Part shown: positions 16,582 to 22,410 of the stretch, piece after piece
How the letters are laid out: each line of letters begins with the position of its first letter
Numbering within the stretch: the stretch's first letter is position 1
From: an uncultured Lachnospiraceae bacterium
Lineage (GTDB): Bacteria; Bacillota; Clostridia; Lachnospirales; Lachnospiraceae
Assembly: GCA_947591245.1 (NCBI GenBank)
Contig: CANQCY010000013.1
Location: 1-45,107, forward strand
DNA length: 45,107 nucleotides
Direction of reading: 5' to 3'
Notes under the pieces: model-generated
What the model was told of the DNA's origin: nothing
The model's input: the letters and a program-made list of their open reading frames with translations, nothing else
Database searches by the model: none
Made by a program: the position numbers and the translations under genes

Positions 16582-17301
16582 TTATTTTGAGAAGCGATGG
16601 TTTTTACGGTATTCTTTTGGCAGAGTCTGAAAATATGCCTTGAACGCCGAAGCGAACCTGCTTTGGCTTTCATATCCGACCCGCTGTCCGATTTCTGCAA
16701 TACTCAGGTCAGTCTCTGAAAGAAGATTTGCCGCCAGTTCCATGCGGCGCTCCTTGATGTGGGCTGCAATGGAAGTTCCATAGACGGACTTGAATACTTC
16801 TTTCAAAGTAGTGGGATTGATCAGGTACCGCTTGGAAAGGGCGTCAATTGTAATCCGCTGTCCGATATTCTGCATAAGATATTCATGAATGTTACGGATC
16901 GTTTCGATCTGTTCGGACGGATATTCTGTCAATTTATTATTCAAGCAGGCAATTTCCATGACCTCTTCGATCATCTGATGCAGGAGGCGGCTCTGTTCGG
17001 TATCTGCGGCACGGTAATAAACTTCCTTTCCCTCACGGCGGCAGACGATCAGCCCGCTGTTTTTTAGCGGCCTTAAGTGATGGGAAACAGCGGGGCTGGA
17101 CATATTTAACATCGCTGAGATATTCAGCACGCATTCTTCGCAGTGGCACAAAAGCCAGAAGATGCGGATTCTCGTAGTGTCGCCGAGCTGTTTAAATACA
17201 TCGGCCACTGTCTGGAAATCATCTACATGGCTTAATTGTTCCCGAATAAGGACGGTTTCCCGCCCCTCTCCATGATAGTGAGGCAATTTCGCATGATTCA
17301 T
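16582..17301 (-). CDS. ArsR-AraC fusion transcriptional regulator of the metal operon
   Basis: 239-residue regulator with two different DNA-binding domains. Residues about 25-100 are an ArsR/SmtB winged helix (QLGDTTRIRIFWLL, SPAVSHHLRPLKNSGLI, REGKEVYYR). Residues about 130-239 are an AraC-type double HTH (ITIDALSKRYLINPTTLKEVFKSVYG, then LSIAEIGQRVGYESQSRFASAFKAYF). Potential metal ligands are an N-terminal His cluster (H3, H8, H10) and C52, C54 and C57; the classical ArsR CxC pair is not intact because the second position is Leu-59. It is divergent from the metal operon and 202 bp away, so I infer it controls that operon and itself. SD AGGAAAGGAAG. Confidence 0.88.
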   Translation of the reverse strand: MNHAKLPHYHGEGRETVLIREQLSHVDDFQTVADVFKQLGDTTRIRIFWLLCHCEECVLNISAMLNMSSPAVSHHLRPLKNSGLIVCRREGKEVYYRAADTEQSRLLHQMIEEVMEIACLNNKLTEYPSEQIETIRNIHEYLMQNIGQRITIDALSKRYLINPTTLKEVFKSVYGTSIAAHIKERRMELAANLLSETDLSIAEIGQRVGYESQSRFASAFKAYFQTLPKEYRKNHRFSK

Positions 17302-17350
17302 TATGTTCTTCCTTTCCTTTTATGCTTCTCGCGAAGCAGCTGACTCTATT

Positions 17351-17386
17351 TTCGCCCAATCAGAAATACATTTCGCCCATTCGGAA
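17351..17386. promoter_or_regulatory. Direct repeat with 21-bp period, candidate AraC-type operator
   Basis: TTCGCCCAATCAGAA (17351-17365) and TTCGCCCATTCGGAA (17372-17386) agree at 13 of 15 positions and start exactly 21 bp apart, two helical turns, the usual arrangement of AraC-family half-sites. The pair ends 18 bp upstream of the -35 box of the metal operon, a suitable place for an activator. Binding by the neighbouring fusion regulator is inference. Confidence 0.6.
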
Positions 17387-17404
17387 GGGAATCCATTCCG
17401 GGTA

Positions 17405-17433
17405 TTGACTTAGTATTTTATATGTATTATACT
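17405..17433 (+). promoter_or_regulatory. Promoter of the metal operon
   Basis: TTGACT (17405-17410), 17-nt spacer, TATACT (17428-17433): one mismatch to consensus in each box. Transcription would start near 17440, about 64 nt before the HMA gene. Confidence 0.75.
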
Positions 17434-17441
17434 ACAACCAT

Positions 17442-17467
17442 AATGATTAAACAAGTACTTAATTATT
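17442..17467. promoter_or_regulatory. Inverted repeat at the transcription start, candidate ArsR-type operator
   Basis: AATGATTAA (17442-17450) and TTAATTATT (17459-17467) are inverted copies with 8 of 9 bases matching and an 8-bp spacer. The AT-rich dyad just after the -10 box is where ArsR/SmtB repressors normally bind. The N-terminal domain of the adjacent regulator is the obvious candidate ligand (inference). Confidence 0.5.
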
Positions 17468-17503
17468 GAATCAAAAAAATTATTTTTGAGGAGGATTATC
17501 CCT

Positions 17504-17722
17504 ATGAAAAAGACTTACAAGATCGACGTAGATTGCGCCAACTGCGCAAATCTGATGGAGGATGCTGCGCGCAAGACGGATGGCGTGAAGGACGCAACGG
17601 TTAATTTTATGACGCTGAAAATGATTGTCGAGTTTGATGAGGGGCGGGAGCCAAAGACCGTGATGGAGGATGTTCTGAAGGCTTGTAAGAAGGTTGAGCC
17701 TGACTGTGAGATTTTCCTTTGA
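17504..17722 (+). CDS. Small HMA-domain metal-binding protein
   Basis: 72-residue stand-alone heavy-metal-associated domain of the CopZ/CadA-N type. DCANC (residues about 10-14) provides the CxxC metal ligands after the first strand, and the beta-alpha-beta-beta-alpha-beta pattern (VKDATVNFMTLKMIVEF, then VMEDVLKACKKVEPD) is complete. It starts behind GAGGAGG at 17488-17494, so the ATG at 17504 is used. It precedes a P1B ATPase that lacks its own N-terminal HMA domain, so it may act as that pump's detached metal-loading domain or as a chaperone (inference). Confidence 0.9.
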   Translation: MKKTYKIDVDCANCANLMEDAARKTDGVKDATVNFMTLKMIVEFDEGREPKTVMEDVLKACKKVEPDCEIFL

Positions 17723-17815: not shown

Positions 17816-19834
17816 ATGCAGGAAATAATTGTAAATGCGCTGCTCATTGTGGTGATCGCCATGGCAGCCATATTTCTTTTTATTGTCGGAAGGAGTGAAA
17901 ATGGGAGGATGACGAAAAAGCAGAAGAAAATGCTGGTTCGCATTTTGATTTCAGCCGCATTGCTTTTGCTGCTTCAATCTGTATCTGCCGAAACCTTCGA
18001 TCAGCTTGATCATTACCTGTTCCCTTCAGCGGGACGTTTCGCGCGCCTTGTCCTTTATCTGGCCAATTATTTTATTATCGGTTGCGACATTCTGCGAAAA
18101 GCCGTAAAGGGCGTTTTAAACAGGCAGGTGTTTGACGAAAATTTTCTGATGGCAGTCGCTACGATTGGCGCTATGGCGCTTGCCATTTATGAGAATAGCG
18201 ATTATCTGGAGGCAATTGCCGTCATGCTGTTTTATCAGGTTGGCGAATGGTTTCAGGGATATGCTGTGGGAAAAAGCCGTCGGAGTATCAGCGCTCTGAT
18301 GGATATCCGGCCGGATTATGCCAATGTGGAGCGTGATGGCAAATTGGAACAGGTTGATCCTGATGAAGTAGGCGTCGGAAGCGTCATTGTGGTTCGGCCG
18401 GGAGAAAAGGTTCCGATTGACGGTACGATTGTGGAAGGCTCTTCCGCTTTGAATACCAGCGCCCTGACCGGAGAAAGCCTGCCGCGGGAAGCGAAAACCG
18501 GAGATGAGATTATCAGCGGATGCATCAGCCTGACGGGAGTATTAAAGATTCAGACAACAAGGGAATTTGGGGAATCCACGGCGTCCAAAATTCTGGATCT
18601 GGTGGAGAACGCAAGCTCCAGAAAGTCAAAATCCGAGGATTTCATCTCAAAATTTGCAAGGATTTATACGCCCGCGGTATGTTACGGCGCGTTGGCTCTG
18701 GCGATCTTGCCGCCGATCATCCGAATGCTGTTTATGGATCTTCCCGCTGACTGGGGCGTTTGGATTTACCGCGCATTGACATTCCTTGTTATCAGCTGTC
18801 CATGCGCGCTTGTAATCAGCATTCCGTTAAGCTTCTTTGCCGGAATCGGAGGCGCAAGCCGGGAGGGCGTTCTGGTAAAAGGCTCAAATTATCTGGAAAT
18901 CCTCTCTCGGACAAAGTATGTTGTATTTGATAAAACCGGTACTCTGACACAGGGCGTTTTTGAAGTGAATGGAATCCACCACAATGAGATGGATGATAAA
19001 AAGCTGGTCGAGTATGCCGCACTGGCGGAAAGCGCATCTTCCCACCCCATCAGCAAGAGCCTGCAGCGCGCTTACGGAAAAGAGCCGGATCGTACCCGCG
19101 TGAGCGATATTCAGGAAATCAGCGGAAACGGCATCATTGCCAGAGTGGACGGCGTGGAGGTTGCCGCCGGCAACGATAAGCTGATGAAGCGTTTGAATAT
19201 ACCATATATTGGCTGCCATCACGCCGGCACCATTATTCATATGGCAATCAGCGGGGAATATATGGGGCATATTGTAATCTCTGATGTCGTAAAACCGGAT
19301 TCTGAGGCTGCTATTGCCGCCTTAAAAACAGCGGGCGTTGAAAAAACCGTGATGCTGACCGGTGATGCGAAGAAGGCGGCCGATCAGGCGGCGTATTCTC
19401 TCGGCGTTGATGAAGTGTACAGTGAACTGCTCCCCGCAGATAAGGTGTCCAAAGTGGAAGAACTTCTGCGTATGAAGCCTGGCAAAGCAAAGCTGGCTTT
19501 TGTGGGGGATGGAATCAATGATGCGCCGGCGCTGTCCCGCGCGGATATCGGCATCGCCATGGGAGCTATGGGCTCCGACGCGGCTATTGAGGCGGCGGAT
19601 ATTGTGCTGATGGATGATGATCCGATGAAGATTTCAAAAGCGATTAAAATATCAAGAAAATGCTTGAGAATTGTTTATCAGAATATTATAATGGCTCTGG
19701 GGGTTAAGTTTGCCTGCCTGATTTTGGGCGCGATTGGCGTCGCCAATATGTATCTCGCAATTTTTGCAGATGTCGGCGTTATGATACTGGCCGTTTTGAA
19801 TGCGATACGCTGCCTGTTTGTGAAAAAATTATAA
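17816..19834 (+). CDS. P1B-2-type heavy-metal ATPase (Zn/Cd/Pb class)
   Basis: Membrane pump that moves divalent soft metals across the cytoplasmic membrane using ATP, normally outward. The 672 residues have the CPC transmembrane motif (C328-P329-C330), the phosphorylation site DKTGTLTQ with D372, TGES in the actuator domain, an HP dipeptide (SSHPIS), and the hinge GDGINDAPAL. Near the C-terminus a lysine in a membrane helix and then ADVGV fit the P1B-2 (Zn2+/Cd2+/Pb2+) signature and not the copper one. There is no N-terminal HMA domain; the separate HMA gene upstream may replace it. SD AAAGGAGA. A short 48-nt gap leads to feoAB, so the two are likely co-transcribed. Confidence 0.93.
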   Translation: MQEIIVNALLIVVIAMAAIFLFIVGRSENGRMTKKQKKMLVRILISAALLLLLQSVSAETFDQLDHYLFPSAGRFARLVLYLANYFIIGCDILRKAVKGVLNRQVFDENFLMAVATIGAMALAIYENSDYLEAIAVMLFYQVGEWFQGYAVGKSRRSISALMDIRPDYANVERDGKLEQVDPDEVGVGSVIVVRPGEKVPIDGTIVEGSSALNTSALTGESLPREAKTGDEIISGCISLTGVLKIQTTREFGESTASKILDLVENASSRKSKSEDFISKFARIYTPAVCYGALALAILPPIIRMLFMDLPADWGVWIYRALTFLVISCPCALVISIPLSFFAGIGGASREGVLVKGSNYLEILSRTKYVVFDKTGTLTQGVFEVNGIHHNEMDDKKLVEYAALAESASSHPISKSLQRAYGKEPDRTRVSDIQEISGNGIIARVDGVEVAAGNDKLMKRLNIPYIGCHHAGTIIHMAISGEYMGHIVISDVVKPDSEAAIAALKTAGVEKTVMLTGDAKKAADQAAYSLGVDEVYSELLPADKVSKVEELLRMKPGKAKLAFVGDGINDAPALSRADIGIAMGAMGSDAAIEAADIVLMDDDPMKISKAIKISRKCLRIVYQNIIMALGVKFACLILGAIGVANMYLAIFADVGVMILAVLNAIRCLFVKKL

Positions 19835-19882
19835 GATGGGATGGAACATATCCCGGTACGCTGGAGATGAGGTGGAATGTTG

Positions 19883-22264
19883 ATGACAATGGATGAATTA
19901 AAGCCAAAGCAGAGCGCTTATATCCGTTCTGTGGGAGGAGATGGCGCGCTTCGGCATCATTTGCTGGATATGGGGCTGACTCCGCGGACAGAAGTTACGC
20001 TTCAGAAAATCGCTCCTATGGGAGACCCGGTGCAGATCGAACTAAGAGGTTATGAGCTGACGCTGCGGCTGGATGAAGCGCGAAAAATTGAGATTGAGAA
20101 CATACATGCAAAGACGGCAGTCCCCCATATTGAACAGAGGCTGGCAGCGGTAGCGCATCCGGGCGTAGGCGAGCTTGGAAGGGCGGAAAGTTATCGTGCT
20201 CATAAAGCGGGCAAGAAGATTCCGAAAGGCGAAAAGCTTACGTTTGCATTGGCGGGCAACCAAAACTGTGGAAAAACAACTTTGTTTAACCAGCTGACGG
20301 GCGCCAATCAGCATGTCGGAAATTTTCCGGGCGTGACGGTGGACTGTAAAGACGGGACAATCCGTAATCATCCGGAGGCTTCCGTAACAGATCTGCCCGG
20401 AATCTATTCCCTTTCTCCTTATTCCAGCGAGGAAATTGTAACAAGGGATTTTTTGATGGATTCGCATCCAAATGGAATTATCAATATCATTGACGCTACC
20501 AACATGGAGCGGAATCTGTATCTTACCATGCAGATTATGGAACTCGGAATCCCTATGGTTCTTGCGCTTAATATGATGGATGAGGTCAGGGCAAACGGAG
20601 GCTCTGTGAGGGTAAATGAATTGGAAGAAATTCTCGGCATTCCTGTTGTTCCGATTTCAGCGGCTAAAAATGAAGGAATCGAAGAACTCATTGACCATGC
20701 AATCCATGTGGCAAGGCACAGGGAACTCCCCGGAAGGGTTGATTTTTGCCCGGCAAGCAGCGGTGAAGACGATCCTGTGGGCGCGGTCCATCGATGTATT
20801 CATGCGGCAATACACACTTTGGAATTTGATGCAAGGGAAAAAGGGCTGCCTGTTCGTTTTGCGGCGACAAAACTTGTGGAAAACGATCATTTGATTGCAG
20901 AAAAGCTATGCCTTGCCCCCGAAAAACAAACGGCGTTTGAACATCTCGTATCTGTTATGGAAAAGGAAACAGGGCTTGACCGGGAGGCTGCACTGGCAGA
21001 CATGCGATTCTCATTTATAGAATCCCTGTGTGAAAAAACCGTGGTGCGTCCTCATGAAAGCAGAGAGCATAAACGGAGTATGGCGATAGATCGTATTTTG
21101 ACCGGTAAATATACAGCGATTCCATGTTTTATCGGTATTATGGCGTTTATATTCGCTATGACGTTCAGTTTTGCCGGCGCGCTGCTTTCCGATTTAATGA
21201 CCATGGGGGTAGATGCGGCGATCGCATTGCTGGATCAGCTGCTTGCGGCGGTCGAGATCAATCCGGTGATTCACTCCCTTGTGATTGATGGTATTTGCAG
21301 TGGAGTGGGAAGCGTGCTGAGCTTCCTGCCAACTATTGTGACATTGTTTTTCTTTCTGTCTATTTTAGAAGATACGGGGTATATGGCAAGGGTTGCTTTT
21401 GTCATGGACAGACTGTTGCGGAAAATTGGACTTTCCGGCAGGAGCGTTGTTCCCATGCTGATTGGTTTTGGCTGCTCTGTTCCTGCCATTATGTCAACCA
21501 GAACGCTTTCCAGCGAACGCGACCGTAAGATGACGATTCTGCTCACGCCCTTTATGAGCTGTACGGCGAAACTGCCTATTTATTCTATGATGGTCAGCGC
21601 GTTTTTTTCAAGGAAATACCAAGCGCTTGTTATGATTGGATTATACGTCCTTGGAATTGTATGCGCCATTTTGTACGCATTGATTTTGAAAAAGACAAAG
21701 TACCACGGAGAGCCGGTTCCGTTTGTCATGGAACTTCCTAATTACCGGCTTCCATCATCAAAAAGCGTGCTGCAGCTTATTTTTGAAAAAGCGAAAGGAT
21801 TTGTCAGAAAAGCATTTACAATTATATTTGCGGCGTCCATTGTAATCTGGTTTTTGCAGACCTTTGATATCCGCTTTAATATTGCAGCTTCATCAGAGGA
21901 AAGTTTGCTGGCAATGTTAGGAGGTCTTGCAGCCCCGGTATTTGTCCCGTTGGGATTTGGGGATTGGAGGATTTCTACGGCGCTGATTACCGGGTTTACG
22001 GCAAAAGAGAATGTGGTATCCACTCTTACCGTGCTGTTAGGCGGAGATGTGTCTTTGCTGGGAACATTATTTACGCCGTTTACCGCAGTTGTATTTTTGG
22101 CGTTTACATTGCTTTATACGCCATGCGTGGCGGCGGTTGCAACAGTAAAGCGCGAAATGGGCGGCGTAAAGGCGGCGTTTTGCGCCGTAATCGTTCAGTG
22201 TGTAATTGCATGGATCGTTGCTTTTTTCATCCATGCAATAGGAATGGCTGCCGGATTGGCATAG
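19883..22264 (+). CDS. feoB: Fused FeoA-FeoB ferrous iron transporter
   Basis: Fe2+ uptake protein with FeoA and FeoB in one chain, 793 residues. The N-terminal SH3-like FeoA domain spans about residues 1-75 (MDELKPKQSAYIRSV, LDMGLTPRTEV). A linker leads to the G domain with G1 GNQNCGKT, G3 DLPG and G4 NMMD, then about eight or more membrane segments with the two Gate regions around GFGCSVPAIMSTRTL and AKENVVSTLTVLLGG. The ATG at 19883 has GAGGTGG 7 nt upstream; the ATG at 19877 is too close to that SD. Co-location with a Zn/Cd-type pump and an HMA protein is unusual for feo genes. Confidence 0.94.
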   Translation: MTMDELKPKQSAYIRSVGGDGALRHHLLDMGLTPRTEVTLQKIAPMGDPVQIELRGYELTLRLDEARKIEIENIHAKTAVPHIEQRLAAVAHPGVGELGRAESYRAHKAGKKIPKGEKLTFALAGNQNCGKTTLFNQLTGANQHVGNFPGVTVDCKDGTIRNHPEASVTDLPGIYSLSPYSSEEIVTRDFLMDSHPNGIINIIDATNMERNLYLTMQIMELGIPMVLALNMMDEVRANGGSVRVNELEEILGIPVVPISAAKNEGIEELIDHAIHVARHRELPGRVDFCPASSGEDDPVGAVHRCIHAAIHTLEFDAREKGLPVRFAATKLVENDHLIAEKLCLAPEKQTAFEHLVSVMEKETGLDREAALADMRFSFIESLCEKTVVRPHESREHKRSMAIDRILTGKYTAIPCFIGIMAFIFAMTFSFAGALLSDLMTMGVDAAIALLDQLLAAVEINPVIHSLVIDGICSGVGSVLSFLPTIVTLFFFLSILEDTGYMARVAFVMDRLLRKIGLSGRSVVPMLIGFGCSVPAIMSTRTLSSERDRKMTILLTPFMSCTAKLPIYSMMVSAFFSRKYQALVMIGLYVLGIVCAILYALILKKTKYHGEPVPFVMELPNYRLPSSKSVLQLIFEKAKGFVRKAFTIIFAASIVIWFLQTFDIRFNIAASSEESLLAMLGGLAAPVFVPLGFGDWRISTALITGFTAKENVVSTLTVLLGGDVSLLGTLFTPFTAVVFLAFTLLYTPCVAAVATVKREMGGVKAAFCAVIVQCVIAWIVAFFIHAIGMAAGLA

Positions 22265-22278
22265 AGGGGGGATTGTTG

Positions 22279-22410
22279 ATGAATATTGCGAGCATTCTGG
22301 CACTCTGTATTGTGGCTGTGTTGCTGATATTAGCCATTATTTGTTCCCGTAAAAACAAAGAGGGCGAATGCGGCGGCAACTGTGCTGAATGCAAGCTGTG
22401 CAGGAAATAG
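22279..22410 (+). CDS. FeoB-associated Cys-rich membrane protein
   Basis: 43-residue protein with one N-terminal membrane helix (IASILALCIVAVLLILAIIC) and a cytoplasmic Cys-rich tail, CGGNCAECKLC. This is the layout of the FeoB-associated Cys-rich family found after feoB in many Clostridia, perhaps the counterpart of FeoC. SD GAGGGGGG. It is 14 nt after feoB and ends the operon; the next gene is convergent after 20 nt, with no obvious terminator between. Confidence 0.88.
   Translation: MNIASILALCIVAVLLILAIICSRKNKEGECGGNCAECKLCRK

What the first reader, a model, noticed from the sequence alone, without database searches (positions are those of the whole stretch)
17302..17503. One fused ArsR-AraC regulator facing two different operator types in its own intergenic region
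The 239-aa regulator at 16582-17301 joins an ArsR winged helix to an AraC double HTH. The DNA between it and the metal operon carries both matching site types: a direct repeat with exactly 21-bp period 18 bp upstream of the -35 (AraC-activator geometry) and an AT-rich inverted repeat at the start site (ArsR-repressor geometry). This suggests a single protein that represses through one domain and activates through the other, with metal binding switching between them. The repeats and promoter are seen; the two-mode switch is inference.
Basis: partly seen in the sequence, partly recalled or inferred. Interest (0 to 1): 0.72.

Follow-up and report, generated by a model that had tools for sequence, protein, structure and literature searches.

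The report
Fused metal repressor-activator with two operators
A bacterial regulator that joins a metal-sensing repressor head to an activator-type DNA-binding tail faces one matching DNA site for each half in front of a metal-pump operon, and related genomes tend to keep or lose each site together with the matching half, so it looks like one protein doing a job that relatives split between two.

Summary
The 239-aa regulator is an ArsR winged helix joined to an AraC double HTH. Its shared promoter region holds a 21-bp-period direct repeat 18 bp above the -35 and an ArsR-type 12-2-12 inverted repeat at the start site. Relatives give a natural experiment. Where a divergent HMA start was recognised, the repeat pair beats all 100 shuffles in 31 of 31 loci with separate arsR and araC genes, in 57 of 67 fused loci, and in 0 of 17 loci with arsR alone. 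The inverted repeat occurs in all three classes. So the direct repeat tracks the AraC domain and the inverted repeat tracks ArsR. The closest relative (L107) has separate arsR and araC genes; the window's fusion looks like an in-frame loss of araC's sensor half. Fused genes are not one clade (AU test), so such fusions probably recurred. Seven paper searches found no ArsR-AraC fusion. Most likely: ArsR represses at the start site until metal binds, and AraC domains on the repeat activate. Two-site binding is well supported by sequence; the switch is untested.

The parts
16582..17301 (-). Fused regulator, 239 aa: ArsR/SmtB winged helix (about residues 26-119), short linker (about 120-127), AraC/XylS double HTH (about 128-235)
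   Evidence: ORF list; Pfam HTH_5 and HTH_18; NCBIfam metalloregulator NF033788 84.9 bits against cut-off 55; AlphaFold2 pLDDT 87, pTM 0.52, low confidence at the linker
17350..17386 (+). AraC-type direct repeat: copies 17350-17365 and 17371-17386, period 21 bp
   Evidence: 0 of 3000 shuffles at period 21; conserved with split and fused araC, absent with arsR alone
17405..17433 (+). Promoter of the metal operon, TTGACT-17-TATACT
   Evidence: aligned in relatives
17426..17454 (-). Candidate promoter of the regulator gene, TTGTTT (17454-17449) - 17 bp - TATAAT (17431-17426), face to face with the operon promoter; its -35 lies inside the inverted repeat
   Evidence: read from the sequence; TATAAT at this exact offset with TTG at the -35 in 44 of 72 fused, 22 of 31 split, 2 of 19 arsR-only loci. 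Its -35 matches only 3 of 6, so the scanner did not list it
17442..17467 (.). ArsR-type 12-2-12 imperfect inverted repeat (operator) just downstream of the operon's -10
   Evidence: 9 of 12 pairs; consensus over 65 fused loci holds CGATTAAACAAGTGCTTAATCG, over 19 arsR-only loci AACAATTAAACAATTGCTTAATTGTT
17504..17722 (+). Small HMA metal-binding protein, 72 aa, first gene of the operon
   Evidence: Pfam HMA
17816..19834 (+). P1B-type heavy-metal ATPase (zinc/cadmium-type by profile), 672 aa
   Evidence: HMA and ATPase both divergent in 51 of 54 fused loci with at least 5.2 kb on that side
19877..22264 (+). FeoA-FeoB fusion, 795 aa; probably a lineage-specific neighbour, not a conserved part of the module
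   Evidence: tblastn hit of 250 aa or more in 1 of 155 related loci, L107; 59 of these loci have at least 5.2 kb on the operon side

Best explanation
One protein carries two DNA-binding modules that use two different sites in the same promoter. Shown by sequence: the two domains, the two sites, their fixed geometry, and that each site tends to be kept or lost with its own domain. Inferred: without excess metal the ArsR domain, as a dimer, sits on the 12-2-12 repeat just downstream of the operon's -10 and over the -35 of the regulator's own candidate promoter, and represses both. When metal (zinc/cadmium-like is most likely) binds the conserved Cys/His set, the ArsR domain lets go of this repeat. 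The AraC domains, paired through the ArsR dimer, hold the direct repeat at about -61 and -82 and help RNA polymerase start the HMA-ATPase operon. The direct repeat also lies in the regulator's own leader, so AraC binding there would limit the regulator's own synthesis. In close relatives the same circuit is run by two proteins, ArsR and a full AraC with its own sensor half; the window's single chain arose by in-frame loss of that sensor.
For: Both domains are clear. In intergenic regions with a recognised divergent HMA start, the 21-bp repeat pair beats all 100 shuffles in 31 of 31 split and 57 of 67 fused loci and in 0 of 17 arsR-only loci (Mann-Whitney p 1e-10, not corrected for relatedness); of the 13 periods tried, 21 gives by far the best mean fit (7.7 mismatches, next best 11.3 at period 20). 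Searched within 112 to 36 nt before the inverted-repeat core, the first copy starts 92-96 nt before it in 69 of 71 fused and 30 of 31 split loci, so the geometry is the same whether or not the halves are joined. arsR-only relatives L164 and L165 keep the promoter and the inverted repeat, while the direct repeat is eroded in L164 and gone in L165; their genomes (100% and 99% complete) hold no close relative of this AraC (best three hits 33-35% identity, over its DNA-binding end). H8, H10, C52, H53, C57, H108, E112 and C119, nearly invariant in all three classes, argue that the ArsR half still senses metal. Between window and L107 both halves look under purifying selection (dN/dS about 0.09 for ArsR and 0.07 for the AraC domain; this branch includes time before the fusion). 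Median distance from regulator start codon to the first repeat copy is 24 nt in 97 loci, so in many loci the regulator's transcript must start inside or beyond the repeat.
Against: No binding or expression data exist. The operon promoter is already close to consensus (10 of 12 matches), and promoters with AraC are not clearly weaker than those with arsR alone (mean 9.75 fused and 9.90 split against 9.79), so a need for activation is not evident from the promoter. Consensus TTGACA is commoner in arsR-only loci (8 of 19, against 8 of 72 fused and 2 of 31 split), which fits activator dependence but may have other causes. Ten of 67 fused loci have repeats that do not beat all shuffles; L121 shows none. 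Correction for relatedness is limited by short alignments: only 2 independent contrasts on supported branches; in most of 200 pairings both go the expected way, in a few one does not differ, none goes against; sign test p 0.5. The AU test rejects a single arsR-only clade (p 2e-7, 70-row thinned tree).
Confidence: 0.7

Rival explanations
1. Both sites are bound by the fused protein, but the AraC half does not activate the operon. It only limits the regulator's own gene, or helps repression by bridging the two sites, so the protein is a pure repressor with two footholds.
For: The direct repeat lies close to the regulator's start codon (median 24 nt in 97 loci). The operon promoter is near consensus. 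The distance between the two sites is nearly constant.
Against: The repeat lies at a fixed short distance upstream of the operon's -35, as expected for an upstream activator. The same spacing is kept in split loci where nothing ties the two proteins together, so the spacing is set by the promoter and not by a bridge.
Confidence: 0.2
2. In the fused protein one of the two domains no longer contacts DNA and serves only as a dimer or sensor module; the unused site is a leftover of the split ancestor.
For: The window's fusion is recent (L107, 92% identical over the two halves, is still split), so an unused site might not have decayed yet.
Against: Both sites persist across diverged fused lineages (57 of 67 beat all shuffles for the repeat; 72 of 81 have the inverted-repeat core). 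Where araC is missing next to arsR the repeat is gone (0 of 17). Both halves look under purifying selection.
Confidence: 0.07
3. The direct repeat belongs to some other AraC-family protein of the genome and its match with the fused regulator is accidental.
For: Genomes of this family carry many AraC proteins (14 and 23 hits in the two genomes searched).
Against: The repeat is present with this araC (fused or next door) and absent in the arsR-only loci; in the two such genomes that I searched, other AraC proteins remain. The motif has no other perfect copy in the window's genome.
Confidence: 0.04
4. The window's fusion is an assembly artefact of a draft genome.
For: The window's genome is a draft of 55 contigs, 85% complete, and the nearest relative L107 is split.
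Against: The join is exactly in frame. Eighty other fused loci were found, including L073, L075 and L077, whose titles read as isolate genomes.
Confidence: 0.04

Closest known systems
ArsR/SmtB metal-sensing repressors, in particular ZiaR-ziaA (Synechocystis), a repressor transcribed divergently from its target ziaA
   Same: Winged-helix family; [quoted passage not shown] divergent regulator (geometry of zia as stated in passages of PMC8790569; that ziaA is a P-type ATPase gene is recalled).
   Different: Here an AraC DNA-binding domain is joined to the C-terminus and a second, different operator lies upstream of the -35.
AraC/XylS activators (AraC, MarA, RamA; solved relatives 2k9s, 1bl0, 7bef/7beg)
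   Same: Double-HTH domain; two direct-repeat sites 21 bp apart upstream of the -35 (that AraC itself uses direct-repeat sites 21 bp apart is recalled; the paper search for it returned nothing).
   Different: The usual N-terminal sensor/dimer domain is replaced by an ArsR repressor domain that has its own operator.
Split arsR-araC pairs of related Firmicutes (L107, L116, L119 and others; found here)
   Same: Same divergent HMA-ATPase operon, same two operators in the same positions; the two halves of L107 are 92% identical to the window's.
   Different: Two proteins; AraC keeps a sensor half of about 200 residues, without a Pfam match in the three scanned.
MerR-type metal regulators
   Same: One protein that both represses and activates a metal operon (recalled).
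   Different: MerR does it from one site by twisting the DNA (recalled); here there are two domains and two sites. No sequence relation was tested.

Membership tests
ArsR/SmtB metalloregulators | Winged-helix ArsR domain | tested here: met
   Pfam HTH_5 41.3 bits (cut-off 22), NCBIfam NF033788 84.9 bits (cut-off 55); CzrA and SmtB among solved relatives
ArsR/SmtB metalloregulators | 12-2-12 inverted-repeat operator near the start site | tested here: met
   9 of 12 pairs in the window; conserved. Definition from passages of PMC8790569
ArsR/SmtB metalloregulators | Conserved metal ligands | tested here: inconclusive
   H8, H10, C52, H53, C57, H108, E112, C119 nearly invariant over 153 rows (81 fused, 36 split, 36 arsR-only). 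The set resembles CadC-like sites by recall only; D100, which lines up with a zinc ligand of CzrA by my reading, is less conserved (57 of 81 fused)
ArsR/SmtB metalloregulators | Metal-driven release from DNA | not testable with these tools
   needs binding assays
AraC/XylS regulators | C-terminal double HTH | tested here: met
   HTH_18 81.3 bits (cut-off 33.6); fold matches MarA, AraC, YesN domains
AraC/XylS regulators | Direct-repeat binding sites about two turns apart upstream of the promoter | tested here: met
   sites present and conserved with the domain; binding itself not tested
AraC/XylS regulators | N-terminal sensor/dimerisation half of the AraC type | tested here: not met
   absent from the window's protein; in the 36 split relatives the N-terminal parts form one BLASTP-connected group
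AraC/XylS regulators | Activation of transcription | not testable with these tools
   needs a reporter assay

The most novel reading that the evidence does not exclude
A repressor-plus-activator pair has repeatedly been turned into a single chain by cutting out the activator's own sensor, while the two-operator promoter stayed the same. In the fused form the metal-sensing repressor domain becomes the activator's dimeriser and sensor, so one metal-binding event both lifts repression at one site and leaves activation at the other.
Probability: 0.55. Interest if true: 0.8.

Novelty: new variant of a known kind. Interest (0 to 1): 0.7.

Why it matters
A regulator with two unlike DNA-binding domains raises the question of which site each domain reads. 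Here nature supplies the controls: relatives with both halves separate, both halves joined, or one half missing, and the two operators follow the halves. This allows a direct test of how a two-protein promoter logic becomes one protein, and whether a metal repressor domain can replace an activator's sensor. It also gives a pair of predicted DNA motifs for this metal-pump operon in Lachnospiraceae and Oscillospiraceae.

Tried and rejected
Iron as the signal because of FeoAB: dropped, since FeoAB was found in 1 of 155 related loci (L107), although only 59 have at least 5.2 kb on the operon side. A regulon of several operons: no second perfect copy of either motif in the window's genome (the repeat pattern with 3 mismatches gives 247 hits against 171 for the reversed control and is uninformative). 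A clearly weaker core promoter as a sign of activator dependence: not seen in total matches. A relatedness-corrected pair test: too few supported contrasts. A second AU test (window and L044 as one clade) did not finish and is not used. Naming the split AraC sensor by Pfam: three proteins scanned at E up to 1; all matches lie at the HTH end. The two papers that searches listed were looked into by passages; the passages shown (AraC in 1 place in each) do not describe such a fusion. PMC8790569 was seen by passages only.

Rows dropped: of 156 loci classed (81 fused, 36 split, 36 arsR-only, 3 unclear), one search uses the 117 with a recognised HMA start upstream (67, 31, 17, 2). One of the 17 (L173) has no divergent HMA gene by tblastn, so a stricter count is 0 of 16. 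Eighteen duplicate, refetched or unrelated loci were skipped. The operator core was found in 31 of 36 split loci; L038, L041, L125, L134 and L152 were not within 6 mismatches. One search scored the repeat in 71 of 72 fused, 31 of 31 split and 14 of 19 arsR-only loci that have the core; six regions (one fused, five arsR-only) were too short. The first tree used 81 fused and 22 split rows, before the later fetches.

Full report
What is there. The window's regulator (16582-17301, minus strand, 239 aa) joins an ArsR/SmtB winged helix to an AraC/XylS double HTH. A predicted structure gives two domains, with low confidence at the linker (block means 70 and 65 for residues 111-130) and no fixed relative position (pLDDT 87, pTM 0.52). 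Each domain matches solved structures of its own family (YesN/MarA/AraC; CzrA/SmtB), and by title none of the 50 matches at E 0.001 or better pairs an ArsR with an AraC domain. The gene is divergent from a small HMA protein and a P1B heavy-metal ATPase, followed by a FeoAB fusion.

The two sites. The direct repeat (17350-17365 and 17371-17386, period 21 bp) ends 18 bp before TTGACT-17-TATACT. At period 21 none of 3000 shuffles reaches it. With a start site assumed about 7 nt after the -10, its copies centre near -61 and -82, an upstream-activator position (recalled). The inverted repeat at 17442-17467 is a 12-2-12 imperfect palindrome with 9 of 12 pairs. Alone it would not beat chance (85 of 300 shuffles hold as good an inverted repeat), but it is conserved. 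The literature gives 12-2-12 repeats as the ArsR/SmtB operator and describes one between the -10 and the start codon of ziaA, under a divergent regulator (passages of PMC8790569 seen).

Relatives. In the nearest relative found, L107 (Bacterium D16-36), arsR and araC are two adjacent genes, and araC has an N-terminal half of about 200 residues that the window lacks. Aligned DNA shows both halves and their flanks conserved with that stretch absent from the window, in frame. The N-terminal parts of the 36 split AraC proteins form one connected group (BLASTP, E 1e-3), so the split form with a sensor is the likelier ancestor and fusion means loss of the sensor. On a tree of 81 fused and 22 split rows the label changes at least 8 times on the best tree, and at least 4 changes are forced by well-supported branches; a single fused clade is rejected (AU p 3e-69, quick tree). 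L044, fused and placed among split relatives, keeps a tail of the sensor that the window does not, which points to a separate event.

The natural experiment. I classed 156 loci as fused (81), split (36), arsR-only (36) or unclear (3). In the 117 with a recognised HMA start upstream, the repeat pair at period 21 beats all 100 shuffles in 31 of 31 split, 57 of 67 fused, 0 of 17 arsR-only and 0 of 2 unclear loci; median mismatches 7, 7, 17 and 18.5, the last two at the shuffled level. Of the 10 fused exceptions, 4 are matched by at most 5 of 100 shuffles, 5 by 9 to 22, and L121 by 86. The first copy starts 92-96 nt before the inverted-repeat core in 69 of 71 fused and 30 of 31 split loci. In L164 and L165, close ArsR relatives without araC next door, promoter and inverted repeat align with the split relatives while the direct repeat is eroded or gone, and their near-complete genomes hold no close copy of this AraC. 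The AU test rejects one clade for the arsR-only rows (p 2e-7; 70 rows, fused rows thinned, 113 columns), but only two contrasts lie on supported branches, so the strength of the association corrected for relatedness is moderate.

Autoregulation. In 97 loci the first repeat copy lies a median of 24 nt from the regulator's start codon, so in many of them the regulator's own promoter must overlap or lie beyond the repeat. A candidate on the minus strand, TTGTTT-17-TATAAT, overlaps the operon's -10 and has its -35 inside the inverted repeat; its TATAAT and TTG are kept at the exact offset in 44 of 72 fused and 22 of 31 split loci and in 2 of 19 arsR-only loci. If it is the promoter, one ArsR site would control both directions.

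How it most likely works. ArsR dimers hold the inverted repeat and shut both promoters; metal binding to a conserved His/Cys set (H8, H10, C52, H53, C57, H108, E112, C119) frees the site; AraC domains on the direct repeat, paired by the ArsR dimer, assist RNA polymerase. The metal is probably zinc or cadmium-like, from the ATPase profile and the cysteines; this is inference. The sites and their owners are supported by comparison; repression, activation and the metal switch are not shown.

Limits. No assay data. Promoter quality does not clearly speak for activation. The fused class is over-sampled. FeoAB was found in only 1 of 155 relatives, most of which have short flanks on that side. The literature check covers open full-text papers only (ten searches).

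Noticed in passing
L019 and L058, linker between the two halves (residues after C119): Some fused proteins have His/Cys-rich linkers, which could be an added metal site gained at the junction.
   Followed up: no
L108, L111, L115, L117, L120, L123, upstream regions: In these fused loci an ArsR-like repeat seems to lie between -35 and -10, and a third AraC-like half-site seems to overlap or abut the -35 in some (by eye).
   Followed up: no
window 19877-22264 and about 22279-22410: FeoA-FeoB fusion followed by a 43-aa membrane-like peptide with a Cys-rich tail (read within an ORF), downstream of the metal ATPase; FeoAB also in L107, in no other of the 155 loci.
   Followed up: partly
L100 upstream of the regulator: The control region is masked (run of N) and could not be read; the locus is not in the counts.
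   Followed up: no
L167 (G124:C29) and G124 contigs C45, C47: One genome carries several ArsR relatives of this family on different contigs; in L167 an arsR without adjacent araC lies about 10 kb from an araC and an HMA-ATPase operon.
   Followed up: no
Split AraC proteins, e.g. L107:6411-7316: Their N-terminal sensor half of about 200 residues has no Pfam match in the three proteins scanned, yet links all 36 split relatives by BLASTP; its ligand is unknown.
   Followed up: partly
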